Shown here in pieces: positions 13,649-62,662 of a stretch of DNA of 64,000 bases; the stretch's first letter is position 1, and each line of letters begins with the position of its first letter. Below the pieces are notes generated by a model. That model had not been told where the DNA came from. It was given only the letters and a program-made list of their open reading frames with translations, and made no database searches. A program made the translations under genes and the position numbers. The stretch lies in the NCBI GenBank assembly GCA_958296165.1, contig OY282447.1, positions 2,170,001-2,234,000 on the forward strand, written 5' to 3'. This stretch comes from an uncultured Pseudomonadales bacterium. GTDB taxonomy: Bacteria > Pseudomonadota > Gammaproteobacteria > Pseudomonadales > Azotimanducaceae.

Positions 13649-13733
13649 GACTAAGAACGCCAAGAAGGATGTGGAACGCGAGGTAGCGGTCGCCTATGCT
13701 CTGTTGGCGATTCGTCCCAGCTAGGAGAGACCA

Positions 13734-14816
13734 ATGCAAGCTGCCGTTCTGCGCGAAGTCAACAAGCCGCTCGCCATCGAAGATGTGAGCACGGCCGATC
13801 CTGGGCCGCGTGAAGTGCTGGTGCGCACCGCCGCGGCGGGCGTGTGCCACTCGGACCTGCACTTCCAGAACGGCGCCTATCCCTATCCGCTGCCGGCCGT
13901 GCTTGGCCACGAGTCCGCCGGCGTGGTCGAAGCCGTGGGTTCGGACGTCCACTATGTGCAGCCGGGCGATCATGTGATCACCTGCCTCTCGGCCTTCTGC
14001 GGGCATTGCGAATACTGCCTCACCGGGCGCATGGTGCTGTGCAACGAGCCGGAGTTGTCGCGTGGCCCTGGCGAGCCGCCACGGCTTGCGGCCGGCGACG
14101 AACCGCTAGCGCAGTTCCTGAACCTGTCTTCGTTCGCCGAGAACATGCTGGTGCATGAACACGCGGTGGCGAAGATTCGCAAGGACATGCCGCTCGACCG
14201 GGCGGCGCTGATCGGCTGCGGCGTGACCACCGGCGTAGGCGCGGTGATCCACACCGCGGCGATCGAACCGGGTTCGACGGTGGCGGTGATCGGCTGCGGC
14301 GGCGTTGGCCTGTCTTGCGTCAACGGCGCCGAGATTGCCGGTGCGTCGCGCATCATCGCCATCGACACGGTGGCCTCCAAGTTGGAGTTGGCGCGCAAGT
14401 TCGGCGCCACGGACACCGTCAACGCGGCGCAGACGGACCCGATTGAAGCGGTGCGGGAAATGACGAGCGGCGGCGTCCACTATGCGTTCGAGGCCATCGG
14501 CCTAAAGGCCACCACCGAACAGGCATTCAAGATCATCAAGAACGGCGGCACGGCCACCGTGATCGGCATGATCCCGGTGGGCACGATGGTGGAAATCCAC
14601 GGCCCCGAGTTCCTGCGCGAGAAGAAGCTGCAAGGTTCCAGCATGGGCTCCAACCGCTTCCGCGTCGACATGCCCCGCTTCGTGGATTTCTACCTCGCCG
14701 GCAAACTGCACTTGGACGACATGATCTCGGGCCGCATCCGATTGGAAGACGTCAACGATGCCTTGGAGGCGTTGAAGACCGGCGAAGTCGCCCGCAACGT
14801 CATCGTCTTCGATTGA
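13734..14816 (+). CDS. Zinc-dependent alcohol dehydrogenase (medium-chain, class III/NDMA-type)
   Basis: The 360-residue protein belongs to the medium-chain dehydrogenases. The catalytic zinc site is in AAGVCHSDLHF with GHESAGVVEAVG. The structural zinc lobe has four cysteines in CGHCEYCLTGRMVLC plus the preceding one. The NAD-binding Rossmann motif is VAVIGCGGVGLSCVNGA, followed by an acidic residue (IIAIDT) that favours NAD over NADP. The ATG has a good ribosome site (AGGAG) and a possible -10 box TATGCT at 13695. It probably oxidises a primary alcohol or an aldehyde-glutathione/mycothiol-like adduct; the exact substrate cannot be read from sequence. It stands alone between the AAA gene and tRNA-Gly. 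Confidence 0.9.
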   Translation: MQAAVLREVNKPLAIEDVSTADPGPREVLVRTAAAGVCHSDLHFQNGAYPYPLPAVLGHESAGVVEAVGSDVHYVQPGDHVITCLSAFCGHCEYCLTGRMVLCNEPELSRGPGEPPRLAAGDEPLAQFLNLSSFAENMLVHEHAVAKIRKDMPLDRAALIGCGVTTGVGAVIHTAAIEPGSTVAVIGCGGVGLSCVNGAEIAGASRIIAIDTVASKLELARKFGATDTVNAAQTDPIEAVREMTSGGVHYAFEAIGLKATTEQAFKIIKNGGTATVIGMIPVGTMVEIHGPEFLREKKLQGSSMGSNRFRVDMPRFVDFYLAGKLHLDDMISGRIRLEDVNDALEALKTGEVARNVIVFD

Positions 14817-40449: not shown

Positions 40450-41943
40450 ATGATCCCCATTAAGCACAATATCTGCTTAATTCGGACTATCGTCCTGTAT
40501 GCCGTAGCGGTAACTTCACTACTAGCCTGTGGCACGGAGGGGTTGATCGAAACGTCAATGCCACGTCCAACAGCGGCGCCAGTTGTTACCCAGCTCCCAG
40601 ACCCTGCGTCTGGCGCCAAAACAGTCGGGTTGATCCTGAACGAGCCAGGAGCATTTGGCGGCTATACGTTATTCAATAAAGTGCGGAGCGAGACGATTTA
40701 CCTGATTGATAGTCATGGGCGGGCGGTTCATAGGTGGGAGCTCGACTCCCCCTCCCAGTTCACAAAATTGCTAAAGAATGGAAATCTGCTGATTGGTTCC
40801 CGCGGCGTAGCGGCGGTTGACCGGGACGGCGACACTCTTTGGCAATGCATGCTGGACAGTTGGCATCATGACTTTCTTAGAATGCCCAACGGAAATTTGC
40901 TGCTGCTGTCCCGGCAAGACAAAGCGGCCGAGGAAGCCATCGCCGCCGGCGCCAACCCGGACTTCATCGGCGCTGATGGCTTGACGGTGCCGCATATCGT
41001 TGAAGTCAAGTTCACCGGGCCGGCAAACTGCGAAATTGTCTGGGAATGGTCGGCGTGGGATCATCTGATTCAGGACTTTGACTCCGGCAAGGCGAATTAC
41101 GGGGTGGTGGCCGAGCATCCGGAGTTGATTGACCTTAACTTCCACCTTTCCGAGGTAGCCGCCTGGCGTGACCCTTCGGACTGGATACACAGCAACGGAA
41201 TCGACTATAGCCCGGAATTGGACCAGGTTGTGCTATCGGCCCGTCATTTCAGCGAAGTGTGGATTATCGACCACAGTACCACCACCGCGGAGGCGGCCGG
41301 CCACGGCGGCGGAAAGAGTGGCAAAGGGGGCGACTTGCTGTATCGCTGGGGCAACCCGCGAGCCTGGCGTGCCGGGACTCGCGATGACCAGCAACTCTTC
41401 TGGCAGCATAACGCTCATTGGATCGCCCACGGCCTGCCCGGTGCCGGAAACATCCTCATTTTCAACAACGGCCGCGAGTTCGGGGATTTCCCGCGTGGCT
41501 ATTCGTCGGTGGACGAGATTACTCCGCCGGTGGACGGGGCCGGCTATCGGCTGAATCCGCACTCCGCTTACGCGCCGGCAGAACCTGCATGGGCCTACAC
41601 TGCCGCAACGCCCAGCGACTTCTTCTCTGGATATATCTCAGGAGCGCAACGGCTTCCCAACGGAAACACGTTGATTTGCGATGGTGCACACGGTACGTTT
41701 TTCGAGGTAACGCCGGCCGGGAGAGCAGTCTGGAAATACATCAACCCCATGACCAGCAAAGGCCCTTTGCGTCAAGGCGAGTCGGTGCCAAACAAACGAG
41801 ATGACAATAATCGGGTGTACCGCGCTTATCGGTATGCGCGGGACTACCCCGGTCTGCAAGGGTTTGATTTGATCCCGGGTGAGCCGCTCGAGCTTGATTC
41901 CACCTTTAGCCCGATTCGGACCGAGGCAAATGTCAGTGAGTGA
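40450..41943 (+). CDS. Arylsulfotransferase-like (ASST) lipoprotein 1
   Basis: The 497-residue protein has a lipoprotein signal ending in the lipobox LLAC. Then come GLILNEPGAFGGYTLF and repeated propeller strands (LIDSHGRAVHRWEL, NGNLLIGSR, NGNTLICDGAHGTFFEV), the pattern of the arylsulfotransferase (ASST) beta-propeller family. True ASSTs move sulfate between phenols in the periplasm, but many relatives are untested. It is closely similar to the protein encoded at 60800-62605 in the opposite orientation, but lacks that protein's extra C-terminal domain. The codons are more AT-rich than in neighbouring core genes, which points to horizontal transfer. Confidence 0.8.
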   Translation: MIPIKHNICLIRTIVLYAVAVTSLLACGTEGLIETSMPRPTAAPVVTQLPDPASGAKTVGLILNEPGAFGGYTLFNKVRSETIYLIDSHGRAVHRWELDSPSQFTKLLKNGNLLIGSRGVAAVDRDGDTLWQCMLDSWHHDFLRMPNGNLLLLSRQDKAAEEAIAAGANPDFIGADGLTVPHIVEVKFTGPANCEIVWEWSAWDHLIQDFDSGKANYGVVAEHPELIDLNFHLSEVAAWRDPSDWIHSNGIDYSPELDQVVLSARHFSEVWIIDHSTTTAEAAGHGGGKSGKGGDLLYRWGNPRAWRAGTRDDQQLFWQHNAHWIAHGLPGAGNILIFNNGREFGDFPRGYSSVDEITPPVDGAGYRLNPHSAYAPAEPAWAYTAATPSDFFSGYISGAQRLPNGNTLICDGAHGTFFEVTPAGRAVWKYINPMTSKGPLRQGESVPNKRDDNNRVYRAYRYARDYPGLQGFDLIPGEPLELDSTFSPIRTEANVSE

Positions 41944-45730: not shown

Positions 45731-48700
45731 TCACGCCTCCGCGACCGGTCGGTCGCCATCGTCGTGCGCCGTCCCTGTCGCGACGCTCAACCCGGCGAGA
45801 AACATGAACGCGCCCATGCCAAGCAGATGGTGGAGGCTCATGCAGTACAGCGCAATGACGAAGACCCCGGCCACGGTCGCGTCCCGGGCAAGCGACTTGG
45901 GCGCGGCCCACTGCCGGCGCAGCAGCAGGACGATGGCGGACACGAACAGCAGCAGAGGGACGATGCCCGCCTCGCCCAACAAACTCAGATACAGATTGTG
46001 AACGCCCAACGGCCTGCCGTGATTTCCTATTGGGGCGCCGTCCACGTAATCCAACGCCCAAAGGCCGTGACCGAAGAATGGCGCCTCGATGGCCTTCTCG
46101 AAACCCAATCTCCAAAGCAACGGTCTGTCCATCGCCAAGGCAGTCCGGTCGAGGCCGCGGTCGAAGTCCGGGGTAGGCAAACGGAGCAGTTCCTGCGGCA
46201 ACTGGCCGCGGATCCCGTTGCCGGTGACATCTACGGAGAGCCCCTCGAATCCGGCCAATGCGGGCGGGATGGAACCAGTGAGACGGTTGTCGGCCAGCCA
46301 CAGTTGTTTGAGATTCAACAGATTGGCGAGCTCGGGCGGGATGGGGCCGGTCAGGCGATTGCCGTCCAACGACAGCATCGTCAAACGGGTCAGGTTCGCC
46401 AGTTCGGGCGGAATGGGGCCGGTCAGCCGGTTGCCGTCGAGCCGCAGAACATCGAGATGCCTCAGTTCGCCGAGTTCCCGGGGAATCCTGCCCGTCAGAT
46501 CCATCTCTCGCAAGTCCAGGCCGACGACGCGACCTCCGTCGCCGATGGACACGCCCCGCCAAGACGAGACGGGCCGGACATAGCTCCAGTTCAGCGACGC
46601 GTCGCCGGCCAGGATGTCGCGCATGCGCATCAAACGCGCGCCGTCTTCGAACAGGCCCGGTTTGATCGAGGGCGGCGACTCGCAGAGCAGATCGGCGGAA
46701 TCCAAGTCGTTGTCGCGGACCTGCGCCGCGCGCGACCCAACCCTGACGCAGCCCGCAAACGCGTTGCCGCCCAGCCGGAGGACCGCAAGATTGGCCAACC
46801 AGTCAAGCTGCGCGGGGATCGATCCGTGCAGACGATTGTTCTCGAGCCGCAGTTCCTCCAGCTGCCACAGAGAACCAAGCCCCGGATGGAGGTTGCCCGT
46901 CAGATTGTTTCCTTCCGCGGCGAGCACTCGCAGACCGGTCAAGGCGTTGAACTGCTCCGGGCGGCCAGTGAGTTCGTTGCCGCCAAGACGCAGCGAAACG
47001 AGTGCCTGCAACGCCCCCAGTTCTTGCGGGATCGCGCCGGCGAGCGCGTTGTTCTCCAGCGCGAGCGTCCGCAGCCCGGCCAATGCGCCGAGTGCCGGCG
47101 GGATCGATCCCGCAAGTCGGTTGTCGCCAAGACGCAGAACGGCCAGCGCGTCCAGAGCGGACAGCTCTGCGGGAATCCGTCCGTTCAATCCCATGTGCGA
47201 CAGATCCAGCGCGGTCACGCGCAAACCTGCCGCGGCGTCGCCGGCGAGGGCGGGAAGGCCGACGGTGACGCCCCGCCAATAGCCGATGGGAACTTCGTCG
47301 TGCCAGTTCAATTGGACATCGCCGGCCAGAACGCGCCGGGCGTCCAACAACGTGGTGCAGTCGCCATGCAGGCGCGACCGTGCTTCGAGGTGGCGTCGAC
47401 AGAGCAGGTTTCGGTCGAGAACGCTTCGGCGCCCGCGATCCTGGCCAGCCGCGTCCTCGCCTTGGCGCAACCCGACCAGCTTGGGCAGCGCGACCACCGA
47501 GGGAGGCGCGGGGCCGCTCAAACGGTTCCAGCGCAACCCCAAGTCGGTGAGCTTCGACAGCTTGCCAAGTTCCGGCGGTACGGATCCGGTCAAGAGGTTG
47601 CCGTCCAATGCCAGTATGCGGAGATCGACGAGGTCGCCGAGCTCGGGCGGGATCTCGCCGACAAGGCGGTTGCGGCCGAGGCGCAGAGAGACGAGCCCGG
47701 CAAGCTCGCCCAACTCCGCGGGTATGTGTCCGTTCAACCCCATTTGCGTAAGATCAAGCGCCGTCACGCGGCCGCGCGAACGATCCACGGTGACTCCCTG
47801 CCAATCGTCGACCGGCACGTCAACGTGCCAGTTGAGCGGCGCAGGCCCGGCAAGGCTGTCCCTCGCCGTCAGCAGGAGGGCGCAATCGGCTTGCAGGCCC
47901 GGATCGATCTTCCTCGGCCGGCAGAAGGCCGGCGTGTCGAGGTCGTGGTCGACAATTTCGCGGAGCGCCGGCGGAAAGGGCCGATGCAGGTCGTTGCCGG
48001 CGAGGCGCAGGAAAGAGAGATTTTCCAGTCCTGCGAGTTCCGGAGGCACGGGCCCCGTGAACCGATTGCCTTCCAGGCGCAGCGAGACGAGCCGTTCCAT
48101 CCCACCCAGGCCCGGCGGGATGGGCCCGCCGAGGCGGTTGCGACCGAGGTTGAGCGAGACGAGGCCGCCCAGTTCTCCGAGCTGGGCAGCCAAGCGTCCG
48201 TTCAGTCCTGCGCCCGGCAATTCGAGGGCGGTCACGCGCTTCGGCGCGCCACGGACCGTGACGCCCTGCCAGAATTCGAGGGGAACGTCCTCGCTCCAGT
48301 TGAGCGGAGCGTCGCCGGCCAGGACCTCCCGGATCGACAGCAGAAGGGCGCAGTCGGCCTGCAGATCGGAAACGATGCCGGAGGAGGGTCGACAGAACAG
48401 GCGCTCTACGAACGCCGAACGAGCCGTGTTCGCGCGCCGGTCCAATGTCTGCGCAGCGTGCGCGTCGCCCATTGGTCGACGAGGGCGCATATCCTCGACG
48501 ACGATGTCGTTGGTGGCGATCGTCCGGAAGAGACGCTCCGGGAAGGGGCGGTCCAGTTTGTTGCCGGAGAGGCGCAGGACGTTCAGCTTCTCGAGATCTT
48601 CGAGCTCCGCCGGCACGGGGCCTTCCAAGGCGTTGGAGGAGAGCGCCAAGTACTCCAGGTTGGTCAACTCCCCCAGTTCCGGAGGCACGGGGCCGGCGAG

Positions 48701-51700
48701 CCCGTTGTCGCTGAGATCGAGCGACACGAGATGGCTCAATCGTCCCAGCGCCGGCGGGATGCGCCCGTTCAGCCCCGACCGTGGCAGTTCGAGCATCGTC
48801 ACGCGTTCCGCCGCGCCGCCAATGGCGACGCCTTGCCAGGACTCCATGGGCACATGCTCGCTCCAGTTGAGCACCGCGTCGCCGGCGAGGACGTGTTCGA
48901 CGGCCAGCAGCGTCTCGCAATCGCCGCGCAAACCCGGATTGGCGTTCCGAACGCTTGGGCAGGACGGTTCCCGGCGGGCGACGGCCCGCAGTTCGGGCGG
49001 CAAGGGGCCGGTCAGGTCGTTGCCGCCCAGCCAGAGTTCCCTCAGGCTCGACAGATTCGCCAGCTCCGAAGGGACGGCGCCGGTCAACGCGTTGTTGCCG
49101 AGCCCGAGCGCTTCCAAGCGCGTCAGTTTTCCCAGCTCGGGCGGAATGGGGCCGGTCAGGTCGTTGCCGTCGAGCACGATGGCCCGCAAGCCGGCGAGCT
49201 GCCCCAACGCCGCGGGAACACGCCCATTCAGGCCCATTCTGGGCAGTTCCAGCGCAGCGACGCGACCTTCCGGCCCGCCCACGGTCACGCCCAGCCACTC
49301 CTCCATCGGCAAGGCCGCGCTCCAGTTGAGGCGTGCGCTGCCGGCCAGCGTTCTTGCCATCCTCGACAGCGCGACGCAGTCGTCGAACAACGCGGGGCTC
49401 AATCCCGGCGGCGGCTCGCAGACCAACAGATCGCCGAAAGCGGTTGTTGGGATCTCGAGCAGTTTCGACGGCACGGAACCGGTCAGGGCGTTGCGATCCA
49501 GGAACAGACTGCGCAGGCCGACGAGTCGCTCCAACTCCGGCGGAATCGAACCGGTAAGCTGGTTGGCGGACAAGTCCAGGAACACGAGGTCGTCCAAGCT
49601 GCCGAACTCCCGCGGAATCCGCCCAGCGAGTCCCTTGGCGGCCAGATGGAGCTCGGTCAAACGTCCGTGCCGGCCTACGTTCACGCCCTCCCATTCGACC
49701 AGCGGCAGCGCCACGCTCCAGTTGAGCTCCGCCGCGCCAGCCAGCGTCTCCTTTGCCGCCAGGAGCGAAGTGCAATCTTCGAACAACTCCGGGTCGAGAG
49801 GCGCTGGCGGCGCGCAGAACACGAGATGCCGGAGATCATGGTCGCGGACGTCGGACAGCGCCGGCGGAACAGGACCGGTCAGGCGATTCTCCCTCAGCCA
49901 CATGGAATCGAGCCGCCCGAGTCGTCCCAGTTCCGCGGGAACGACGCCGGTGAGAGAGTTGCGGTCCAGACTCAAACCACGCAAACGGACGAGGCGCCCC
50001 AACTCGGGAGGAATCGGCCCGGCGAGGCGGTTGTTCGCCAAGTTCAAATCGACGAGTCCCTCCAGCTTGCCGAGTTCCGGGGGAATGCGTCCGTTCAGCA
50101 TCTTATCGCTCAGGTCGAGCCCGGAGACGCGTTCCCGGGCGCCGCCCACGGTCACGCCTTCCCAGGAACCGACGGGGATCGCCGCGTGCCAGTTGAGCGA
50201 CGCGTCGCCGGCCAGCGTGCCCTTCGCCGCCAGCAGCAGCGTACAGTCCGCGAACAGCTCAGGGCTCGTTGACGGCAGCGGCAGACAAGGCCGCGTACGG
50301 GCCAGACCGTGGTCGGCAGCGGCGGCGAGTTCGCGGGGGACGGAGTCGAAGTCGTTGCGCGCAAGGCGCAGGATGGACAGGTCGAGAACTCCGAGAGCGG
50401 CCGGTACCGGGCCGGTCAGACGGTTGGCGGCCAACCGCAGCATCTTGAGGTTCTCGAGCTTCGCCAGCTCCGGCGGGATGGCCCCCGTCAAGTCGTTGTG
50501 GTTCAGATTCAGAACCTCGAGGCTCGCCAGGTTGCCCAACTCGGGCGGAATGCTGCCCCCGAGCCGATTGCGTTGCAGGAGTAGCGAAACGAGGCGATCC
50601 AGACGGCCGATGTCCGAAGGGATCCGGCCGTTCAATCCCGCTCCGCGCAGATCCAGGCGGGTGACGCGTCGCCCGCTGGCGTCCACCGTAACGCCCTGCC
50701 AGGAGCTCACGGGCACGTCGCTGCTCCAGTTCAAGACAACGTCCCCGGCCAGGACGTCCCTCGTTGCCAGCAGGACCGAGCAGTCCGTGCCGGGACCATC
50801 CGTCGGCGACGGCTCGCAGAACGGCATCGCGTTGTCCGCAACGCCCCCCGACCGCAACCTCGACCACTCGAAAAAACCTCCGGAGACAATCACGACAACG
50901 GCGAGTCCCGCAATCCCCGTCGACACTGTCGCTGCCCAGCCAAAGACGAAGGTCCTCGATTTGCCGCGGACGTTGATCGCCAGGAACACGATCGCCAGCG
51001 CGCCGAGTACGACCAGCGCCGTTCGGGACGCCGTCGCCAGGCTCGCGGCGACGCCGGCGATCAGACCAAGCCAGCCGATGGCGCGCGCCCCGCCGTTGGT
51101 CAGCCACGCCGCCGCCAGCGCCACCGTCATGCACGCCCCCAAACTCGCGTCGTTGGGATCGGCGAAAACACCGGTCAGACGAAATGGAATTCGGTAAGGC
51201 GAAAGGACTCCGAGGTCGCGCAGGAGCGGCGAAGCGAGAATGACGACGCAAGCCGGAATCAGGATGACAAGCGCACCCTGCAACAGCCCCTGCGCCCCGA
51301 CTCGTTCCAACACCGCCCAGCCGCCCGTCACGGCAGCCGCGAGCACGCCGAAATGGAGGAGTTGATACGTCAAGCGGTCCAATGCGGCCGGTTCCCGCAT
51401 CGCTTCGGCGCCAAGCGCCAAGGCGCCGATTGCCAGATACGACGCCACCGCGCCCAACAGCAACATGCCGGGCGTTTCGCCAAGCGTCCTCCGGACAGGG
51501 GCGAATGAACGAGACTTCCGCCAAGCGATCGCGCTGCGCACCGCGACCAAGCCCAACAACACCACGACGAACGCCATCGTCGCCCGGGCCACCATGGCCT
51601 CGAACTCGGGCAGCCCCCGAAGCGGGAGATACCTCAGGTCGGTCAGCGTCGCGAACGCCAATCCCCAAAACGCAACGGCGATCAACGACGTCGGCAACGC

Positions 51701-51742
51701 CTCTCGGCGGCGCAGCAGCGAGGCCGGATGTCCGAACAGCAC
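45731..51742 (-). CDS. O-antigen ligase/polymerase-like membrane protein with about 1550-residue LRR insertion
   Basis: The 2003-residue product starts at GTG 51742 after AGGAG. Residues 1-300 are membrane segments of the Wzy_C/O-antigen ligase family, with FADPNDASLGACM and LATASRTALVVLG. The family then expects a periplasmic loop. Here residues 309 to about 1860 form nine modules of plant-type leucine-rich repeats (LTGPIPPELGxLxxLxxL). At about 1871 the ligase resumes with RPLLWRLGFEKAIEAPFFGH and the conserved VHNLYLSLLGEAG, followed by final membrane helices. WaaL-type enzymes join glycan to lipid A core; related enzymes glycosylate proteins or polymerise glycan. LRRs would face the periplasm and could hold a protein or glycan. 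No frame break occurs over 6 kb, so the fusion is under selection. Confidence 0.85.
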   Translation of the reverse strand: MLFGHPASLLRRREALPTSLIAVAFWGLAFATLTDLRYLPLRGLPEFEAMVARATMAFVVVLLGLVAVRSAIAWRKSRSFAPVRRTLGETPGMLLLGAVASYLAIGALALGAEAMREPAALDRLTYQLLHFGVLAAAVTGGWAVLERVGAQGLLQGALVILIPACVVILASPLLRDLGVLSPYRIPFRLTGVFADPNDASLGACMTVALAAAWLTNGGARAIGWLGLIAGVAASLATASRTALVVLGALAIVFLAINVRGKSRTFVFGWAATVSTGIAGLAVVVIVSGGFFEWSRLRSGGVADNAMPFCEPSPTDGPGTDCSVLLATRDVLAGDVVLNWSSDVPVSSWQGVTVDASGRRVTRLDLRGAGLNGRIPSDIGRLDRLVSLLLQRNRLGGSIPPELGNLASLEVLNLNHNDLTGAIPPELAKLENLKMLRLAANRLTGPVPAALGVLDLSILRLARNDFDSVPRELAAAADHGLARTRPCLPLPSTSPELFADCTLLLAAKGTLAGDASLNWHAAIPVGSWEGVTVGGARERVSGLDLSDKMLNGRIPPELGKLEGLVDLNLANNRLAGPIPPELGRLVRLRGLSLDRNSLTGVVPAELGRLGRLDSMWLRENRLTGPVPPALSDVRDHDLRHLVFCAPPAPLDPELFEDCTSLLAAKETLAGAAELNWSVALPLVEWEGVNVGRHGRLTELHLAAKGLAGRIPREFGSLDDLVFLDLSANQLTGSIPPELERLVGLRSLFLDRNALTGSVPSKLLEIPTTAFGDLLVCEPPPGLSPALFDDCVALSRMARTLAGSARLNWSAALPMEEWLGVTVGGPEGRVAALELPRMGLNGRVPAALGQLAGLRAIVLDGNDLTGPIPPELGKLTRLEALGLGNNALTGAVPSELANLSSLRELWLGGNDLTGPLPPELRAVARREPSCPSVRNANPGLRGDCETLLAVEHVLAGDAVLNWSEHVPMESWQGVAIGGAAERVTMLELPRSGLNGRIPPALGRLSHLVSLDLSDNGLAGPVPPELGELTNLEYLALSSNALEGPVPAELEDLEKLNVLRLSGNKLDRPFPERLFRTIATNDIVVEDMRPRRPMGDAHAAQTLDRRANTARSAFVERLFCRPSSGIVSDLQADCALLLSIREVLAGDAPLNWSEDVPLEFWQGVTVRGAPKRVTALELPGAGLNGRLAAQLGELGGLVSLNLGRNRLGGPIPPGLGGMERLVSLRLEGNRFTGPVPPELAGLENLSFLRLAGNDLHRPFPPALREIVDHDLDTPAFCRPRKIDPGLQADCALLLTARDSLAGPAPLNWHVDVPVDDWQGVTVDRSRGRVTALDLTQMGLNGHIPAELGELAGLVSLRLGRNRLVGEIPPELGDLVDLRILALDGNLLTGSVPPELGKLSKLTDLGLRWNRLSGPAPPSVVALPKLVGLRQGEDAAGQDRGRRSVLDRNLLCRRHLEARSRLHGDCTTLLDARRVLAGDVQLNWHDEVPIGYWRGVTVGLPALAGDAAAGLRVTALDLSHMGLNGRIPAELSALDALAVLRLGDNRLAGSIPPALGALAGLRTLALENNALAGAIPQELGALQALVSLRLGGNELTGRPEQFNALTGLRVLAAEGNNLTGNLHPGLGSLWQLEELRLENNRLHGSIPAQLDWLANLAVLRLGGNAFAGCVRVGSRAAQVRDNDLDSADLLCESPPSIKPGLFEDGARLMRMRDILAGDASLNWSYVRPVSSWRGVSIGDGGRVVGLDLREMDLTGRIPRELGELRHLDVLRLDGNRLTGPIPPELANLTRLTMLSLDGNRLTGPIPPELANLLNLKQLWLADNRLTGSIPPALAGFEGLSVDVTGNGIRGQLPQELLRLPTPDFDRGLDRTALAMDRPLLWRLGFEKAIEAPFFGHGLWALDYVDGAPIGNHGRPLGVHNLYLSLLGEAGIVPLLLFVSAIVLLLRRQWAAPKSLARDATVAGVFVIALYCMSLHHLLGMGAFMFLAGLSVATGTAHDDGDRPVAEA
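46140..50818 (-). repeat. Nine tandem LRR modules inside the ligase gene
   Basis: Each module is about 130-240 residues. It starts with a cysteine, a proline-rich stretch and a second cysteine 10-14 residues on, then a cap of the form LLxxxxxLAGxxxLNWS, VPxxxWxGVTV and RVTxLDL. Three to seven 24-residue LRRs follow. The cap looks like the plant LRRNT_2 N-terminal cap (LLxxKxxLxxxxxLxxW...CxWxGVxC). Module 1 begins at residue 309 (50818), module 2 at 486 (50287) and module 9 at 1687 (46684). Module 9 has glycine where the second cysteine should be. The modules differ enough that they are old duplicates. Confidence 0.8.
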
Positions 51743-51951: not shown

Positions 51952-53736
51952 TTGCACCTGTCCGCCGAGATCTCCGCGACGCCTCCGCCCGTCACCGCGC
52001 CCTTGGAGGGCTTGCTCGCGGGGCTGCGTCTCCGCCTCGGGACCGGCGACACGGAAGCCGACCTGGAGGCACTCTCCCGGGTCGACGACTGGAACGCCGT
52101 CGCCGCGCTCGCGCGGCGACACCGGGTGGCGCTCCTGCTCTTGCAGGGGACACGGAATCGAGCCGCCGACCTGGTCTCCGACTCCGGCATCGCGCCGAGG
52201 CTCAAGAGAATCGGCGAACGGACCGCGCGTCGCGGGCTGGCCCAAGTCGCAGCGCTGAAACGGGCGACCGGCCTGCTTGCCGCCGCCGACATCCCCTGTC
52301 TGGTGCTCAAGGGTGTGCCGCTCAGCCAACGCCTGTACGGACACCCGCTGGCGAGAAGCGCGCGGGACATCGACCTGCTGGTTGCACCGCGAACGTTTCA
52401 GGCCGCCGAGCGGGCACTGCTGGAAAACGGCTGGTCGCGGGTCGAGCCGAATTTCCCTGAGACACCGGCCCGCAACCGCTGGTACCGCAGGTTCCAACAT
52501 GATCATACGCTCGCAGGCCCCGGCGGATTGCTGGAGCTGCACTGGCGCCTGTCGACCAACCCCTTCTACATCGACGTGCCTTTCGAGAGGCTCCTTGCGG
52601 GCAGCGTCCAAGTGGAGATCGGCGCGCTTTCGTTCAGAACCCTGGGGCAGGAGGATGAACTCCTGTACCTGATGTGCCACGGCGCGAGGCATTGCTGGAC
52701 GAGACTTGTCTGGCTGTGCGACGCGGCGGTAATCCTCGCATCCATGGGCTCCGAGCGCTTCGAACGGGTGTCGGCGCGGTGCCGGCAAGCGGGGCTTTCG
52801 AGCATCCTCGCCTCGACGCTGCTGCTGTGCGGGGCGGCGCTCCACGTCCGGCTTCCGCGGGGTGCGGCGCCGTTGCCCGCCAGTGGAAGGCGAGCGGCCT
52901 GGATCGCCCGTCTTTCGGAACGGACCTGGTGCGATGAAGACGCCACCCGTTTTAATGGCGGCTTTGACTGGGCCGGGCAGAAGGCGGTCAGGCTGATCGC
53001 CAAGCCCCATTCGAGGACCATCCTGCACGAGATCGCAAGCGTGTTCGTCGGCCCGCAAGACTGGGGGAGGCTCGACCTCCCCGACCGGTTGTTCTACCTG
53101 TACTTCCCGCTGCGTCCGCTGCTCTGGGCGACCAGGAGGAAGGGCGGCCGGAGCGCGCCTCCTGCCGCGACCGCAGGGGCGGATCCCCGCCTCGGGCAAT
53201 CCGCGAAAGCCGTTCGCGCTTTCGTCCGCGCGCCCGTTGCGGCCAAGGCGACGGCGCTGGAAGCGGCGCTGTTCCTGCTCCTGGCGCGGCTGCTCGTCGC
53301 GCACGTGCCGATGCGCCGCTGGCGGCGCTGGCTGGTCACGGCGGAAGCGCCGGCGCCGACCGGCCGACCGGCGGCGGACTCGCACGTTGCTTCCTGCGCC
53401 GGCGATCCCGAAGGACCGGCGCTTGCCGGTGAACATCCGGCGGGCGCACCGCGGCGGCGGCTTCCCCGAAGGGTGGCGCGCATCGTGCGAAGGGTCGCCC
53501 GCCACGTGCCGTTTCCCGCCGTGTGCCTGCCGCAGGCCATGGCGCTGCAGTGGATGCTGCGCCGCCGCGGGGTCTCGAGCCGCCTCGTCTTCGGCACCCG
53601 TCGCAAGGCGCAGGATTCGGGGCTGGATTTCCACGCTTGGCTGACCGTCGGCGGGGAATGCGTGATCGGGGCGGGCGAGGTCGAGACGTATGCGGCGCTG
53701 CCGCCGTTCGACGGCATCGGCCCGCGGCCCGGATGA
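51952..53736 (+). CDS. Nucleotidyltransferase (NTP_transf_5) fused to lasso-peptide B2-like cysteine protease domain
   Basis: The start is TTG 51952, with GAGGGG 7 bases upstream; the frame gives 594 residues. Residues 60-370 match the uncharacterised nucleotidyltransferase PF14907: IPCLVLKGVPLSQRLYGHPL then the acid pair DIDLLV (D139, D141), and HDHTLAGPGGLLELHWRLS. A 100-residue linker rich in A, P and R follows. Residues 490-594 look like the lasso-peptide biosynthesis B2 (transglutaminase-like) domain: cysteine C525 in FPAVCLPQAMALQWMLRRRG and histidine H561 in DFHAWLTVGGE. B2 proteins remove leader peptides from ribosomal peptides. The fused pair, with PqqD and ABC genes alongside, suggests peptide maturation. 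The exporter gene overlaps its stop (ATGA). Confidence 0.8.
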   Translation: MHLSAEISATPPPVTAPLEGLLAGLRLRLGTGDTEADLEALSRVDDWNAVAALARRHRVALLLLQGTRNRAADLVSDSGIAPRLKRIGERTARRGLAQVAALKRATGLLAAADIPCLVLKGVPLSQRLYGHPLARSARDIDLLVAPRTFQAAERALLENGWSRVEPNFPETPARNRWYRRFQHDHTLAGPGGLLELHWRLSTNPFYIDVPFERLLAGSVQVEIGALSFRTLGQEDELLYLMCHGARHCWTRLVWLCDAAVILASMGSERFERVSARCRQAGLSSILASTLLLCGAALHVRLPRGAAPLPASGRRAAWIARLSERTWCDEDATRFNGGFDWAGQKAVRLIAKPHSRTILHEIASVFVGPQDWGRLDLPDRLFYLYFPLRPLLWATRRKGGRSAPPAATAGADPRLGQSAKAVRAFVRAPVAAKATALEAALFLLLARLLVAHVPMRRWRRWLVTAEAPAPTGRPAADSHVASCAGDPEGPALAGEHPAGAPRRRLPRRVARIVRRVARHVPFPAVCLPQAMALQWMLRRRGVSSRLVFGTRRKAQDSGLDFHAWLTVGGECVIGAGEVETYAALPPFDGIGPRPG

Positions 53737-55715
53737 ACATTCGGGGCGAGGGGGACGAGGCCGGCCCGTCGCCGCCCGGCCCGTCGGACCGCCGCTTTGA
53801 ACCATCGGGTTCGCGCTCCAGCCGGTCGAGCGGTTCTCCCGCCATCTTCGCCGAGGCGGGGAGACTCGCGCACGCCCTGATCGCCTATGCGCCGCGCAAG
53901 AGCGTCCTGGCGCTGCTGCTGATGCTGGCCGCCGGGGTGACCGAGGCGTTCGGCCTCCTCATGATCATTCCCCTTCTGCACGTGGTCGGTCTCGCCGCGC
54001 GGCCCGGTGGGGAAAGCCCCGTCGCGGAGGCGGTGGCGCGCGCTGCGGACGCCGCCGGCGTGGAGTTGACGCTGCCGGCCATGCTCGCGGTCTTTCTGAT
54101 CCTTGCCGCCGCGCGCTCGGCGGTGGCCTGGCAGCGGACGGTTCTTCTGGCCGGGATGCGTCTGGGATTCACCGACCGGCTGCGCGAGAGGCTCTACGCG
54201 GCCGTCGCGGAAGCGAAGTGGGAGTTTCTCCTCGCGCGCCGCCGGTCCGACGTGCAACATGTGCTGACCGGCGACGTGCAACGCATCGGCCAGGGTGCGT
54301 TCCTCCTCCTGCAACTGGCGGTGACGGCGCTGCTGGCGCTGGCGCAGATCGTGCTCGCCGCGCTGATTTCCCCCTCCCTGACCGCCGCGACCCTTGCCAC
54401 GGGGGCGGCGCTGCTGTTCCTCACCCGCCCGCTGGTGCGGCGTTCGCGGACCCTCGGCGAGATGCTGACCGGCGCCAACCGGGCGCTCCACGGCACCATG
54501 ACGGACTTCCTGGGTGGGTTGAAGCTCGCCAAGGCCTACAACGCCGAAGGGCGGCACGTGCGGCACTTCACGGCGACGGTCACGGTCATGCGGGAACGCC
54601 AGTTGGCGTTTACGCGGCTCAGCTCGGCGGCCCGTGCAGGCCTCGACATGTGCGCCGCGTTCGTGCTTGCCGCGCTGGTCTGGCTTGCCCTGTCCACCGC
54701 CGCGCTGCCGCTACCGGAGCTGTTGCTTGTAGCGGTGATCTTCGCGCGTCTGCTGCCGGCGCTGTTCCGTTCGCAGCAGCAGGCGCAGGCACTGGCCCAC
54801 GCGCTGCCCGCGTACGCCCATGCGCGTGCGATGCACCGAGCGTTGAAAGAGGCCGCGGAGGCGCCCGCAGGTCGCGGCGGCCCGCGAATGGAACTGCGCA
54901 GCGCGCTGACGGTGCGCGACGCTTCGTTCACCTACGAGGCAGGCGCCGAATCCGGAACCGGGATCTGGGCCGAAGCCCGGCTTGGCCTCGGGACCGCGAC
55001 GGAACCCGGGGCCGAGGCCGGGTTCGAAACGGCGGCCGGCGTCGCCGGGCCGGCACTGAAGAACGTCAGCTTGGTTGTCCCCGCTGGGAAGATGACAGCG
55101 ATCGCCGGGCCGTCCGGGGCCGGCAAGAGCACGCTGGCAGACGTCCTGCTCGGCCTCCTCGCGCCCAGCGAGGGCGAGGTGTGCGTTGACGGCGTGCCCC
55201 TGACAGGGGCGAACCTGCACCGCTGGCGGCGCTCCGTCGCCTGCGTTCCCCAGGACACCTACCTGTTTCACGACACCATCCGGGCGAACCTGCGATGGGC
55301 GCAGCCCCGGGCCACGGAGGCGGAGATGTGGCAGGCGTTGCGCCTGGCCGCCGCCGACGGGTTCGTCGCCGCCCTGCCCGAGGGGCTGGACACCGTCGCC
55401 GGAGACCGGGGCGGGCGGCTTTCCGGCGGCGAGCGCCAGCGCATCGCCTTGGCGCGGGCGCTGATGACGAACCCGGCCCTGCTCGTGATCGACGAAGCGA
55501 CGGGGCAGCTTGACGCGGAGAACGAGCAGCGGATCCTCGAGGCACTGGAATCGTTGCGCGGGCGCACGACCGTCGTCGCCATCTCCCACCACCCAGCCCT
55601 ACTGGAAGCGGCGGACGGGATCGTGCGGCTGGAATCCGGCCGAGTCGCCGCCACCGGCTCCTGGCGCGAGCTTGCCCGAGGCGGGCAGGTCCGGCAGATG
55701 CGGCGCCGGCGCTGA
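53733..55715 (+). CDS. ABC exporter (fused membrane and ATPase domains)
   Basis: The ATG at 53733 overlaps the stop of the B2 fusion gene; a longer frame from 53523 exists but is inside that gene. The 660-residue half-transporter has an N-terminal proline/serine/arginine-rich cytoplasmic stretch, six membrane helices between about 40 and 360, and an ATPase domain with Walker A GPSGAGKST (near 459), signature LSGGERQRIALARAL (near 563), Walker B LLVIDEATGQLD and switch H in ISHHPALLE. It lacks a C39 peptidase domain, so cleavage would fall to the B2-like domain. A long G/A/E-rich linker precedes the ATPase core. It may export the mature product or flip a lipid-linked glycan. Confidence 0.85.
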   Translation: MNIRGEGDEAGPSPPGPSDRRFEPSGSRSSRSSGSPAIFAEAGRLAHALIAYAPRKSVLALLLMLAAGVTEAFGLLMIIPLLHVVGLAARPGGESPVAEAVARAADAAGVELTLPAMLAVFLILAAARSAVAWQRTVLLAGMRLGFTDRLRERLYAAVAEAKWEFLLARRRSDVQHVLTGDVQRIGQGAFLLLQLAVTALLALAQIVLAALISPSLTAATLATGAALLFLTRPLVRRSRTLGEMLTGANRALHGTMTDFLGGLKLAKAYNAEGRHVRHFTATVTVMRERQLAFTRLSSAARAGLDMCAAFVLAALVWLALSTAALPLPELLLVAVIFARLLPALFRSQQQAQALAHALPAYAHARAMHRALKEAAEAPAGRGGPRMELRSALTVRDASFTYEAGAESGTGIWAEARLGLGTATEPGAEAGFETAAGVAGPALKNVSLVVPAGKMTAIAGPSGAGKSTLADVLLGLLAPSEGEVCVDGVPLTGANLHRWRRSVACVPQDTYLFHDTIRANLRWAQPRATEAEMWQALRLAAADGFVAALPEGLDTVAGDRGGRLSGGERQRIALARALMTNPALLVIDEATGQLDAENEQRILEALESLRGRTTVVAISHHPALLEAADGIVRLESGRVAATGSWRELARGGQVRQMRRRR

Positions 55716-56268: not shown

Positions 56269-57177
56269 ATGCGGGATGACGAACGGCCGCTGTCCGAGGT
56301 GATGCCGGCGCTGCTGCGCCCGGGCGGCCTCCAGGAACTGGCCGAGGCGGCCCTGCGCCGGACGCTCGCCGCCGACCCCGACGATACGGACGCGCAGTGG
56401 AAGCTGGCCGGGATCCATCGGCGGCAGGGGAACTTCGCCGCGGCGCGCGACCTGTACCGGCGCCTGGGCGCCCACGGCCCCGACCGGCACAAGGCCGCTT
56501 GGCTGCACACGGTGCTGGGCGGCGACGGGCCGCCGGAGGCGGCGCCTCGCGGCATCTGGCCGGCACCGTTCGTGTGGATGGCGAACTTTCTGGCGCCCGA
56601 GCAGTGCGACCGCCTGTTGGCCCTTGCGCTCCAGGGGAGGGAACGCTTCGTCCTCGCGCAGGTGGGGGCTCAGTCATCCGAGCGGGTGGACCCGGAGGTC
56701 CGCCTCACCTTGGAGGCGGACAACCGGACCACGCAGCATTTCCGCCCCTGGTTCGCCCGGAAGATTCGAAGCCTCGTGCCAGAGGTCCTGGCGCGGCTGC
56801 GGATGGAGGGCATCGGCCGATTCCAACTCGAGCTAGGCATGCGCGGGTATCACACGGGGGGGTTCTACCGGGCGCATCGCGATACTGGCGCAATCACCCA
56901 TCGTTCACGGAAGCTCAGCTTCGTGTATTTCTTTCACCGCCAGCCTAGGCGATTCTCCGGCGGAGATCTGCTGCTCTACGATACGGACGCCGATGCTGGC
57001 GTCTACTCCTACAGTGACTTTTCGCGGATCGTCCCGCTCCGCAACAGCATCGTCTTCTTTCCCAGCGCCTGCTGGCACCAGGTGCATTCCGTGCAGTGCG
57101 AGACGGACGACTTCGGGGACGGGCGGTGGGTCGTGAACGGCCATGTGTGGCGTTCTGGCCCGGACCCGGCGGCCTAG
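56269..57177 (+). CDS. 2OG-Fe(II) oxygenase with N-terminal TPR-like region
   Basis: The 302-residue protein starts at ATG 56269 after GGGAG. Residues 20-85 form TPR-like helices (DDTDAQWKLAGIHRRQGNFA). The C-terminal 200 residues are a prolyl-hydroxylase-type dioxygenase with H203 and D205 in YRAHRDTGA, the distal histidine H270 in CWHQVHSV and a basic residue near 286 (DGRW) for the 2-oxoglutarate carboxylate. The Fe2OG fold is also supported by FSGGDLLLYDTD. It probably hydroxylates a peptide or protein side chain. Together with the PqqD and B2 genes it suggests a modified-peptide pathway. Its stop overlaps the stop of the convergent glycosyltransferase gene. Confidence 0.85.
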   Translation: MRDDERPLSEVMPALLRPGGLQELAEAALRRTLAADPDDTDAQWKLAGIHRRQGNFAAARDLYRRLGAHGPDRHKAAWLHTVLGGDGPPEAAPRGIWPAPFVWMANFLAPEQCDRLLALALQGRERFVLAQVGAQSSERVDPEVRLTLEADNRTTQHFRPWFARKIRSLVPEVLARLRMEGIGRFQLELGMRGYHTGGFYRAHRDTGAITHRSRKLSFVYFFHRQPRRFSGGDLLLYDTDADAGVYSYSDFSRIVPLRNSIVFFPSACWHQVHSVQCETDDFGDGRWVVNGHVWRSGPDPAA

Positions 57178-58097
57178 GCCAAGGTCCATCCCGCCCATCC
57201 CCGGGCCGCGGTGCGGACGCGCGCGTTCGTCAGCGCCTCAACGTAGGCCTCGTGCCAGAGCCTGAAGGCGGTGACCTCGGGCCGGTTCCAGCGACCCCGG
57301 ATCCCGCGCAGCATGGCGTCCGGACGCCAAGGCTTGGCAGGCATGTTGAAGTGCAGCACCTTGGCGCGGTGCAGACCCACGCCCTCCCGCGCGCGGATGG
57401 CCGCGGCGCCGGGGATCAGGAAGTTGTAGGTGGAGCTGACGAGCGTCTGCCGCCCGGCGAAGTACCGGTTCAGGAGCGGCTGCTCGCCGAGCGGCGCCTT
57501 GAGGCCGCGCCAGGGCGCCGGCGACATGGCGGCCAGGAGGTCCGCGTACACGCGCTCACCGGCCAGCCGGCCGTCGATGCACAGGAAGCCGCTGTTGAAG
57601 GTGTTCCGAAGGAGCGATCGGCCGGGGACAGGGGCCACCCCGTGCTCAACGGGCAGGAAGGTGTCGGCGTCCACCCGCTGGCCGGCGAGGAAGGAGAGAT
57701 CGCCGCAGCACAGCAGCTCTTCCGTCGAATCGAACAATTCGTCGACCGGCGCGCGGAACAGCAGGTCGCCGTCGCACAACAGCAGCTTGGCGGCGCCTGC
57801 CAGCCGGAACGCCTCGAACATCCAGAACTGCGCCGGATGCATGGGGAGCGGGGCGAGCGCGGCGCACAGGCGCTCGGCCCGCTCCCGCAGCGCCGGCGGG
57901 ACCGGCGCGAACCGCAAGGCATCGGACGTTGCCGCGAGCACTGCGTGCGCCTCTCCGGACAGGCCGTCGTGGATGACGACGATCTCCCCGTCGAACCGGG
58001 GATGGCGCCGCAGGAAGGAATCGATCAGGACAAGCGTTCCCGGCACGTAGCGCTCGGTGGTGGCCGTGGCTAGGCAGACCGGCTTCCTCGCGGTCAT
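57174..58097 (-). CDS. Glycosyltransferase, GT8-like
   Basis: The 307-residue protein starts LATATTERYVPGTLVLIDSF and has the DxD-like LLCDGDLLF at about residue 115, then FNSGFLCIDGR and PLGEQPLLNRYF. These features are typical of GT-A fold glycosyltransferases of the GT8 type, which transfer sugars from UDP-sugar donors using a metal ion. The final VLHFNMPAKPWRP matches the C-terminal HF/HY.G..KPW motif of GT8. Its start overlaps the stop of the next gene (ATGA), so the two act together. It may modify surface glycan or the ribosomal peptide product. Confidence 0.8.
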   Translation of the reverse strand: MTARKPVCLATATTERYVPGTLVLIDSFLRRHPRFDGEIVVIHDGLSGEAHAVLAATSDALRFAPVPPALRERAERLCAALAPLPMHPAQFWMFEAFRLAGAAKLLLCDGDLLFRAPVDELFDSTEELLCCGDLSFLAGQRVDADTFLPVEHGVAPVPGRSLLRNTFNSGFLCIDGRLAGERVYADLLAAMSPAPWRGLKAPLGEQPLLNRYFAGRQTLVSSTYNFLIPGAAAIRAREGVGLHRAKVLHFNMPAKPWRPDAMLRGIRGRWNRPEVTAFRLWHEAYVEALTNARVRTAARGWAGWTLA

Positions 58098-59230
58098 GTC
58101 GCCCCTCCCGTTGTGCCCCTTCCCGGCACCGGTGCGCGGCAGGGAGGCCCCGAACGAACGCCGCCCGCCAATCCACGCAACCGCCGCGCCGCAGCCTCCC
58201 GGCCTTCATGCAGACGGTGCTCCAGCAATCTGGCCCGGACGCGCCAGGGACGAAAGCGGCGGCCGTGGCGCCGCACGGCCTGCCAGTCGATGGAGACGTC
58301 CGGGAACGTGGCGGCGCCCTGCACCCGCTGGGCCGAAGCCGGCGCCTCCGGCCCGGCCTCGCCGGCGCCTTGCGCCCCCGGCCGAGGACCCCGGTTCAGC
58401 CGCCACGGCTGGAAGTTGCCGCCGTGGTTCGCCATCACCACCGCGCCGGCGTCGCGGCTGGCGTCGAAGAAGGTGTCGGGGCCCATCGGGATACGGCCCA
58501 CCCGCGCATCCCGTGCAGCCTGCAGGAACCACTGCCGGACCAGGCGCACGTGCTCGTCCGGCGGCGGATCCAGGAAGTCACCGTACGTCTGCGCGTACAC
58601 ATGGCTCAGGCCGAGGACGCTGAAGTCGAACGCCGGCCAGCGGCACAGCAGCGAAAACCCGCACGATGCCACGGACGCCAGCCCGCGCCATGGCCCGGCC
58701 CACCCGAAGGGCGCGTCGGGCGTGAAGACCATATCCCACTGGACGATCCGCCTGGCCCCGGCGAGCATGAACGGCGGCAGCCGATCCTGCGCCGCCAGGC
58801 CGCGGGCGTGGGATTGCAGCACCTCGATCCAGCGCCGGGGCAGCGCGTCGTCGTCATCGTTGAGCGTCGTGAGGACGTAGTCCGGGGCGCCGGCGGGTGA
58901 CGGCCCAAGCCAGCCGAGGCGCTCCAGTGGCTGCGGCGCATCCGCCCGGTGTTCCACGAACCGGACGCGGTCCATGCCCCGCGTCATGTCCCGCAGCCGT
59001 CGTCGGGCCTCCTGGCCCAGTGCGCGGTCGATGAGCAGCACCCAGGTGAAATCCCGATTCGTCTGCGCGCGCAGACCGGGCAGGCAGGTCGTCTCCAGCA
59101 GGTTCAGGCGCAGCTCGACGGTGCGGGGCGCGAGCGGGTTCATGGTGCGGAACGGCGCGAGGGCGGTGCGCCGGTGCAGCCAGCGGTCGCGCAGGCAGAA
59201 CCGCGTGATGACGAAGTGCTCCAGCGTCAC
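58094..59230 (-). CDS. Rhamnosyltransferase-like glycosyltransferase (PF11316 type)
   Basis: The 378-residue protein starts with GTG 59230 after GGGGGG at 6 bases. HFVITRFCLRDRWLHRRTAL opens the fold, LLETTCLPGLRAQTNRDFTW follows, and YVLTTLNDDDDALPRRWIE carries the acid-rich metal motif. This matches the putative rhamnosyltransferase family PF11316. The last 60 residues are rich in R, G and P and may be disordered. It is coupled to the GT8-like gene. Upstream, 3 bases away, is the C-terminal scrap of a gene interrupted by the IS1595-type element, so a larger glycan operon was probably cut here. Confidence 0.75.
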   Translation of the reverse strand: MTLEHFVITRFCLRDRWLHRRTALAPFRTMNPLAPRTVELRLNLLETTCLPGLRAQTNRDFTWVLLIDRALGQEARRRLRDMTRGMDRVRFVEHRADAPQPLERLGWLGPSPAGAPDYVLTTLNDDDDALPRRWIEVLQSHARGLAAQDRLPPFMLAGARRIVQWDMVFTPDAPFGWAGPWRGLASVASCGFSLLCRWPAFDFSVLGLSHVYAQTYGDFLDPPPDEHVRLVRQWFLQAARDARVGRIPMGPDTFFDASRDAGAVVMANHGGNFQPWRLNRGPRPGAQGAGEAGPEAPASAQRVQGAATFPDVSIDWQAVRRHGRRFRPWRVRARLLEHRLHEGREAAARRLRGLAGGVRSGPPCRAPVPGRGTTGGAT

Positions 59231-62605: not shown

Positions 62606-62662
62606 TAGGCGCGGACATGCACGAAGGGGGGAGTTTGGAGTCGTTTGGACGTAATGGCGCAT

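What the first reader, a model, noticed from the sequence alone, without database searches (positions are those of the whole stretch)
45731..51742. O-antigen ligase-like enzyme with a giant plant-type LRR insertion in its periplasmic loop
Both halves of a Wzy_C/WaaL-type protein are intact in one 2003-residue frame: FADPNDASLGACM and SRTALVV before, RPLLWRLGFEKAIEAPFFGH and HNLYLSLLGEAG after. Residues 309 to about 1860 between them are LRRs. The insertion lies just ahead of the conserved R..LW segment of the catalytic periplasmic loop, so the LRR array would arch over the active site. I know of no described ligase with this design. It might select a protein or glycan acceptor, measure chain length or hold the ligase to another cell or phage structure.
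Basis: partly seen in the sequence, partly recalled or inferred. Interest (0 to 1): 0.93.

Follow-up and report, generated by a model that had tools for sequence, protein, structure and literature searches.

The report
Glycan ligase with giant LRR insert
A bacterial membrane enzyme of the kind that attaches sugar chains to cell-surface molecules carries, in the loop beside its active site, an enormous plant-receptor-like domain, and close relatives of it sit in unrelated bacterial phyla, so it may be a sugar-attaching enzyme that uses a built-in receptor to choose its partner.

Summary
Confirmed, on the minus strand. The 2003-aa frame (45731-51742) is one gene: an O-antigen-ligase-type (Wzy_C) membrane core interrupted, just ahead of its catalytic Arg-His segment, by nine capped plant-type LRR modules (about 1560 aa). 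It is no assembly join: the one-contig genome has five full copies, and eight named genomes of four phyla have 18 more. R240, R1873 and H1915 align with R191, R265 and H313 of solved WaaL, but only through a profile that includes three distant ligases; the family alone does not find WaaL. The site is a domain socket: 12-19 aa in plain relatives, 126-146 aa of a tentatively Ig-like domain, 342-1934 aa of LRR. LRR members form one clade (100/100), and host phylum is no more clustered on the tree than by chance: horizontal spread. LRR framework positions are under purifying selection; module order is kept between phyla. Best reading: a ligase whose periplasmic LRR scaffold docks an acceptor or partner; family and spread are well supported, docking is inference. 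AlphaFold resolved the LRR modules, not the ligase fold, so the 'arch over the active site' is unproven. My searches found no published ligase like it.

The parts
45731..51742 (-). LRR-inserted O-antigen-ligase-like gene, 2003 aa, GTG start
50852..51742 (-). Ligase N-part, residues 1-297: hydrophobic helices up to the start of the large loop
   Evidence: profile match 2-297; hydropathy
51023..51025 (-). R240 (SRTA), in the profile column that aligns with WaaL R191
46145..50818 (-). LRR array, residues 309-1866: nine capped plant-type LRR modules
   Evidence: Pfam; caps; plant receptor matches
50603..50794 (-). module 1 cap
50066..50257 (-). module 2 cap
49595..49786 (-). module 3 cap
49199..49390 (-). 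module 4 cap
48740..48931 (-). module 5 cap
48173..48364 (-). module 6 cap
47705..47896 (-). module 7 cap
47180..47371 (-). module 8 cap
46463..46654 (-). module 9 cap
45734..46144 (-). Ligase C-part, residues 1867-2003: R..LW, HNLYL, last hydrophobic helices
   Evidence: profile match 1865-2002; Wzy_C
46124..46126 (-). R1873, in the profile column that aligns with WaaL R265
45998..46000 (-). H1915 (HNLYL), in the profile column that aligns with WaaL H313
51952..53736 (+). neighbour: NTP_transf_5 + Transglut_core3 protein
53523..55715 (+). neighbour: ABC transporter (true start may lie further in)
57174..58097 (-). neighbour: glycosyltransferase family 8
58094..59230 (-). neighbour: putative rhamnosyl transferase

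Best explanation
The protein is a WaaL-type (Wzy_C) inner-membrane glycan ligase or polymerase that keeps two arginines and a histidine of the active site. A periplasmic scaffold of nine non-equivalent, capped plant-type LRR modules sits in the large loop between them. The scaffold most likely docks a specific acceptor or partner (a glycan carrier, a protein to be glycosylated, or a partner enzyme) and presents it to the active site. The insertion point is a socket that holds a different, tentatively Ig-like domain in sister genes. The gene spreads between bacteria of several phyla, at least some copies together with glycan-synthesis genes. Shown: one intact gene, Pfam family, insertion site, multiple copies, horizontal spread, purifying selection on the LRR framework. 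Shown indirectly: equivalence of the three residues to those of solved WaaL. Inferred: enzymatic activity, periplasmic side, docking role.
For: Wzy_C over cut-off in the window protein and in the one LRR and three Ig-type relatives scanned. Family profile A9 against a profile of three ordinary or distant ligases: hhalign probability 97.6, E 4.5e-12, over both halves. Profile A7, which joins them, against solved proteins: 7tpg WaaL E 1.4e-12, with the columns of R240, R1873 and H1915 on R191, R265 and H313 (the roles of those residues from passages of PMC10920833). In the 23 LRR rows the first R is R in 23, the second is R in 21 (K in 2), the H is H in 23. Large loop lies between short basic loops; 8 of 9 window caps carry a Cys pair 12-14 residues apart. 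Insert length 12-19 aa (3 plain), 126-146 (7 Ig-type), 342-1934 (23 LRR). LRR consensus positions dN/dS 0.06-0.11 in 4 of 5 pairs, 0.33 in the closest pair. Window modules best-match those of six long copies in never-falling order, with ties and skips. Glycosyltransferase, epimerase and GHMP kinase genes lie beside copies.
Against: No activity, ligand or structure is known. Without the three distant ligases the family profiles do not find WaaL or any ligase in the PDB at E up to 10: N-part A2, C-part A3 (only an antiporter, E 1.7), core A9, plain members A11. The ligase part of the AlphaFold model was poor (block means 28-65 pLDDT). Concave-face LRR positions are neither more conserved nor clearly more variable than other non-consensus positions, so nothing points to a binding face. 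For window versus L045 the ligase N-part has dN/dS 0.67 and the C-part 1.25, on few changes, loose for an enzyme. Six of seven Ig-type relatives lack the first arginine.
Confidence: 0.48

Rival explanations
1. A protein O-oligosaccharyltransferase: the LRR array captures secreted proteins that the core then glycosylates.
For: Profile A7 also hits a solved oligosaccharyltransferase, 9rmk, E 7.7e-8. The best relatives of the modules are plant receptor ectodomains, which as a class bind peptides and proteins (recalled, and seen in entry titles). Neighbours of the window copy include a transglutaminase-like protein, an ABC transporter and a 2OG oxygenase, which could belong to peptide modification.
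Against: The WaaL match is stronger (E 1.4e-12). Pfam listed no family of protein glycosyltransferases for the protein at E up to 0.1. No target protein was looked for or found.
Confidence: 0.2
2. A polymerase or ligase in which the LRR array sets chain length: long (8-11 modules) and short (2-3 modules) copies would make long and short chains.
For: 7 of the 9 LRR-bearing genomes hold both a long and a short copy. Of 12 short copies, 7 hold exactly the first and last module type (1 and 9) of the window array.
Against: Modules are non-equivalent and match in order across phyla, which a pure spacer would not need. A co-polymerase was not looked for.
Confidence: 0.12
3. The core is a degenerate ligase used only as a membrane anchor to display an LRR receptor in the periplasm.
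For: Loose dN/dS in the ligase parts of window versus L045 (0.67 and 1.25); six of seven Ig-type relatives lack the first arginine, and two LRR copies have K at the second; family profiles alone do not find solved ligases.
Against: H kept in 23 of 23, first R in 23 of 23 and second R in 21 of 23 LRR copies; Wzy_C over cut-off.
Confidence: 0.14
4. Assembly join of two genes, or a selfish repeat expansion without function.
For: Long GC-rich repeats can be misjoined; antisense frames of up to 1560 aa occur at the same place.
Against: Five full copies in the same genome and 18 in eight others; N-parts of LRR copies 61-90% identical to the window's, so not one molecule read many times; framework dN/dS 0.06-0.11 in 4 of 5 pairs.
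Confidence: 0.02

Closest known systems
WaaL O-antigen ligase (CAZy GT121; structure 7TPG)
   Same: Through profile A7: E 1.4e-12 over 154-409 of 7tpg, with counterparts of R191, R265 and H313; one large loop holds the second R and the H.
   Different: The loop carries about 1560 aa of LRR ahead of the R265 counterpart; the family alone does not find 7tpg; activity and acceptor unknown.
WadA of Brucella (O-antigen ligase with an appended globular GT25 domain)
   Same: An O-antigen ligase that has gained a second globular domain (PMC10920833 and PMC9938171, passages).
   Different: WadA's extra domain is N-terminal and cytoplasmic; here the domain is inside the catalytic loop.
Plant LRR receptor kinase ectodomains (GSO1, ERL1, FLS2, MIK2)
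   Same: Same LRR class and a similar N-terminal cap: GSO1 best stretch 82 bits, i-E 5.2e-22; ERL1 E 3e-19 by structure, though with TM-scores of only 0.24-0.32 for the whole model.
   Different: No kinase, and not a single-pass receptor; caps and LRRs repeat as modules inside a polytopic protein. Pfam did not list LRRNT_2.
Secreted-looking plant-type LRR proteins of Binatia genome G066 (loci L152-L155)
   Same: Related capped LRR module, E 1.3e-15 to 1.2e-9; a possible kind of donor.
   Different: Signal-like N-terminus and long repeat C-termini seen by eye, no ligase core.

Membership tests
O-antigen ligase (Wzy_C / WaaL) | Wzy_C domain over Pfam's curated cut-off | tested here: met
   37.0 bits against 31.7
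O-antigen ligase (Wzy_C / WaaL) | Two arginines and one histidine of the active site | tested here: met
   R240, R1873, H1915 share profile columns with R191, R265, H313 of 7tpg, through a profile that includes three distant ligases; conserved in the LRR rows except K for the second R in 2 of 23
O-antigen ligase (Wzy_C / WaaL) | Direct profile match of the family alone to solved WaaL | tested here: not met
   no match at E up to 10 for A2, A9 and A11, and no ligase for A3; match to ordinary ligases by hhalign instead
O-antigen ligase (Wzy_C / WaaL) | 12 transmembrane helices with the catalytic loop on the periplasmic side | tested here: inconclusive
   Hydropathy gives 8 segments before and 2 after the loop in the window protein, with a basic-loop pattern that puts the loop outside; AlphaFold shows nine long helices before the array but at low confidence
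O-antigen ligase (Wzy_C / WaaL) | Transfers O-antigen to lipid A-core | not testable with these tools
   needs biochemistry
PEP_O_lig_1 (TIGR03097, exosortase-A-associated ligase) | score over 188.1 bits | tested here: not met
   17.3 bits
PglL-type protein O-oligosaccharyltransferase | match to a Pfam family of that type | tested here: not met
   none among the 8 families listed at E up to 0.1; profile A7 matches 9rmk at E 7.7e-8
Plant-type LRR domain | LxxLxLxxNxLtGxIPxxLgxL repeats related to plant receptor ectodomains (consensus recalled) | tested here: met
Plant-type LRR domain | Pfam LRRNT_2 cap | tested here: not met
   not listed, though the cap region aligns with GSO1
Xop-type type III effectors | NCBIfam cut-offs (600, 450, 500 bits) | tested here: not met
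   210.7, 207.2 and 93.1 bits, from LRR stretches

The most novel reading that the evidence does not exclude
This is an acceptor-programmed glycan ligase: an exchangeable periplasmic receptor domain (LRR array or Ig-like), plugged into the catalytic loop, decides what the ligase decorates, and symbionts of several phyla in one host community share these receptor-ligases and their glycan genes by horizontal transfer so as to wear a common surface.
Probability: 0.28. Interest if true: 0.92.

Novelty: new variant of a known kind. Interest (0 to 1): 0.78.

Why it matters
It would be a glycan ligase with a built-in receptor beside its active site, a design that searches did not find in print. It gives a natural example of a domain socket in a polytopic enzyme, with plain, Ig-like and LRR versions to compare. 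It also links repeat-rich, eukaryotic-like proteins and surface glycans in one gene that has crossed phyla, which makes a shared-surface hypothesis testable.

Tried and rejected
Assembly join: rejected (five copies in one contig, 18 elsewhere). Plus-strand reading: stops inside, not the gene. Effector or internalin membership: far under cut-offs. Positive selection on the LRR face: face dN/dS about 0.7-1.0, but other non-consensus positions are 0.5-1.0, and face identity between best-matching modules is like that of other positions; no claim made. AlphaFold of the Ig-type ligase gave pLDDT 42.7 and its structure search no match at E up to 0.001. WaaL control: after the profile A7 hit solved WaaL I left out its three distant ligases and the hit vanished; the N-part alone, the plain members alone and the C-part alone also miss it. 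I therefore call the tie to WaaL indirect and lowered the main confidence from 0.50 to 0.48, the bold reading from 0.30 to 0.28, and raised the degenerate-anchor rival from 0.12 to 0.14. The Ig-like call for the second insert rests on its look and on sub-threshold Pfam hits (best SCAB-Ig, E 0.0084): tentative. Host: passages of four sponge genome notes did not tell which host the OY282xxx genomes come from; that they are sponge symbionts is inference from the taxa, not shown. Phylum names for Vicinamibacterales, Nitrospirales, Entotheonella and Binatia are recalled; the orders come from the record titles.
Full report
Observation. The frame of 2003 codons is on the minus strand, 45731-51742. 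Pfam finds Wzy_C (37.0 bits, cut-off 31.7) in two stretches around an LRR region. The array, residues about 309-1866, is made of nine modules, each with a cap (LNW..W.GV) followed by plant-type LRRs. Eight of the nine caps carry a pair of cysteines 12-14 residues apart. The best relatives of module 1 in the PDB are plant receptor ectodomains, and the alignment includes the cap (GSO1, best stretch 82 bits, i-E 5.2e-22).

Not an artefact. The window lies in a one-contig genome of 5.07 Mb. That genome has five full copies: the window's, and frames of 2034, 2213, 794 and 792 aa, plus an Ig-type relative (548 aa) and a remnant (311 aa). A profile of the capped module finds 32 matches in the genome, all 32 inside these five frames (9, 9, 10, 2, 2). 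Of the 30 LRR loci read (stretches of about 3.2 kb, so often only part of a protein), the 12 outside the ligases that gave a frame showed no cap, and one gave no frame. A scan of named genomes with the N-part found 14 loci in ten genomes, all of records OY282354-OY282460 (the tool says that records of the window's own genome may be left out). Ten of the 14 have an LRR frame whole, one was cut by the fetched stretch (it is whole in L046), and three are Ig-type. Whole-genome searches of those ten genomes gave 2-5 matches in each, some of them fragments. The tree used 33 rows: 23 LRR, 7 Ig-type, 3 plain. Left out: one split LRR copy (L116/L157), two broken copies (L010, 311 aa; G059 near 75-76.5 kb) and weak matches.

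Family and active site. The core without the insert matches ordinary ligases: family profile A9 against a profile of three other ligases gave hhalign probability 97.6 and E 4.5e-12 over both halves; the three plain members alone 97.1 and 7e-11. Profile A7, which pools them, matches solved WaaL 7tpg at E 1.4e-12 across both halves and an oligosaccharyltransferase 9rmk at E 7.7e-8. Counting along the printed alignment and checking the columns, R240, R1873 and H1915 fall on R191, R265 and H313. [quoted passage not shown] Against this: the N-part, the core A9 and the plain members find nothing in the PDB at E up to 10 on their own, and the C-part only an antiporter at E 1.7. In the 23 LRR rows the first R is kept in 23, the second in 21 (K in 2), the H in 23; in the Ig type the first R is kept in 1 of 7. 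Hydropathy finds 8 helices before and 2 after the loop over my threshold in the window protein, fewer than 12, with basic loops one helix away on each side of the array.

A domain socket. Between the core parts lie 12, 16 and 19 aa in the plain relatives, 126-146 aa in the Ig type and 342-1934 aa in the LRR type. The second insert reads like an Ig-like domain but has only sub-threshold Pfam hits. Of 12 short LRR copies, 7 hold exactly module types 1 and 9 of the window array, one 1, 1, 9, two other pairs, and in two only one cap was recognised. Seven of the nine LRR-bearing genomes hold both long and short copies; the Nitrospirales genome has a long one only and OY282354 a three-module one only (rows).

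Spread. LRR members form one clade (100/100). Over all 33 rows the label 'phylum' needs 12 changes against 12.5 for shuffled labels, as low in 73 of 200 shuffles. Starred cross-phylum groups exist: Acidobacteriota with Gammaproteobacteria (99/98), and Entotheonella with Acidobacteriota and Gammaproteobacteria (100/97). The Acidobacteriota-Gammaproteobacteria pair L046/L047 has dS of 0.09-0.16. Around the copies, stretches of 0.7-4 kb are 90-93% identical across phyla, in different orders and strands (60 of 522 rows seen), too different to be one contaminating molecule. I annotated only part of these neighbourhoods; one recurring piece lies in a GT4 gene (own_308k 13176-13892, inside L010:12639-13907). 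Presence is patchy. Genomes with an N-part match: 2 of 16 in the window's genus, 2 of 58 relatives, 2 of 369 in the class, one weak, 3 of 148 in the Binatia class, none of the LRR type, 3 of 162 in the Vicinamibacterales order, one plain and one weak, 1 of 4 in the Entotheonella order, 1 of 196 in the Nitrospirales order. The capped module is in 2 of 398 genomes of the phylum, one weak, and in 10 of 19 chosen genomes. In the large searches only some first-look candidates were scored, so misses are possible.

Selection. In five pairs, LRR consensus positions have dN/dS 0.08, 0.11, 0.33, 0.06 and 0.08; face positions 1.01, 0.68, 0.90, 0.95 and 0.83; other positions 0.58, 0.49, 0.94, 1.02 and 0.53. 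The framework is kept; the face is not special. The ligase parts are loose (N-part 0.39-0.67 in four pairs, undefined in one; C-part 0.29-1.25). Window modules best-match those of six long copies (three of other phyla) in never-falling order, with face identity 0.60-0.66 to the matching module and 0.22-0.24 to the others; this follows from descent and shows that the modules are not interchangeable.

Structure. The two-module copy L049 was predicted with 32 rows: LRR blocks mostly 77-94 pLDDT, each module with a cap helix; transmembrane blocks 28-65; mean 62.6, pTM 0.32. Its best PDB matches are plant receptors (ERL1, E 3e-19, TM-scores 0.24 and 0.32). The relation of the array to the active site could not be read. 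The Ig-type model failed.

Surroundings. Near the window copy lie an NTP_transf_5/transglutaminase protein, an ABC transporter, a GT8, a rhamnosyl transferase, a 2OG oxygenase with TPRs, a DUF218 protein and two arylsulfotransferases. The 314-330 kb copies lie by GT4 glycosyltransferases, an epimerase and a GHMP kinase.

Reading. I take it as a working ligase with a docking scaffold. The gene, its Pfam family, the site, the spread and the constraint are shown; the match of the active site to WaaL is indirect; activity, ligand, topology and purpose are not shown. Literature: ligase plus LRR plus inserted gave one paper, unrelated by its title; ligase plus sponge plus symbiont gave two, seen as listings; the other searches listed nothing of this design among the rows shown. 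The library lacks most subscription journals.

Noticed in passing
L115, L118, L119, L120, L122, L124, L125, L128, L129, L056, L058: Pieces of 0.7-4 kb around the ligases are 90-93% identical in DNA between Nitrospirales, Entotheonella, Binatia, Vicinamibacterales and Gammaproteobacteria genomes, in different orders (60 of 522 rows seen).
   Followed up: partly
L116:6412-9918 (-) and L157:4384-7389 (-): One LRR-ligase copy of OY282460 is in two pieces, N-part with five modules and four modules with C-part, about 26 kb apart; the first piece ends in a foreign, transposase-like tail (that label is recalled, not searched).
   Followed up: partly
L010:14892-15824 (window genome 322891-323823): Remnant of an LRR-ligase with most of the gene missing, among GT4 genes and intact copies.
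   Followed up: no
L117:2944-4515 (-): A further LRR-ligase copy of the Vicinamibacterales genome appears frame-broken.
   Followed up: no
L152, L153, L154, L155: Four 1824-2020 aa proteins of a Binatia genome with a related LRR cap, long LRR arrays and, by eye, closely similar C-terminal regions; possible source of the module.
   Followed up: partly
window 51952-55715 (+): NTP_transf_5/transglutaminase protein and ABC transporter next to the ligase; parts of this stretch recur beside the 2629 kb copy's relatives in OY282460, perhaps a peptide-modification cluster.
   Followed up: partly
window 40450-41943 (+) and 60800-62662 (-): Two arylsulfotransferase genes on either side of the region.
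   Followed up: no
window genome 575655-575969 (-) and 4217795-4218109 (+): Two giant open frames (4668 and 4203 aa), very similar where read, with a few LRRs of another class.
   Followed up: no
L056, L057 (two genes), L058, L119, L129, L012: Ig-type sister ligases: six of seven lack the first catalytic arginine (A, Y or F instead).
   Followed up: partly
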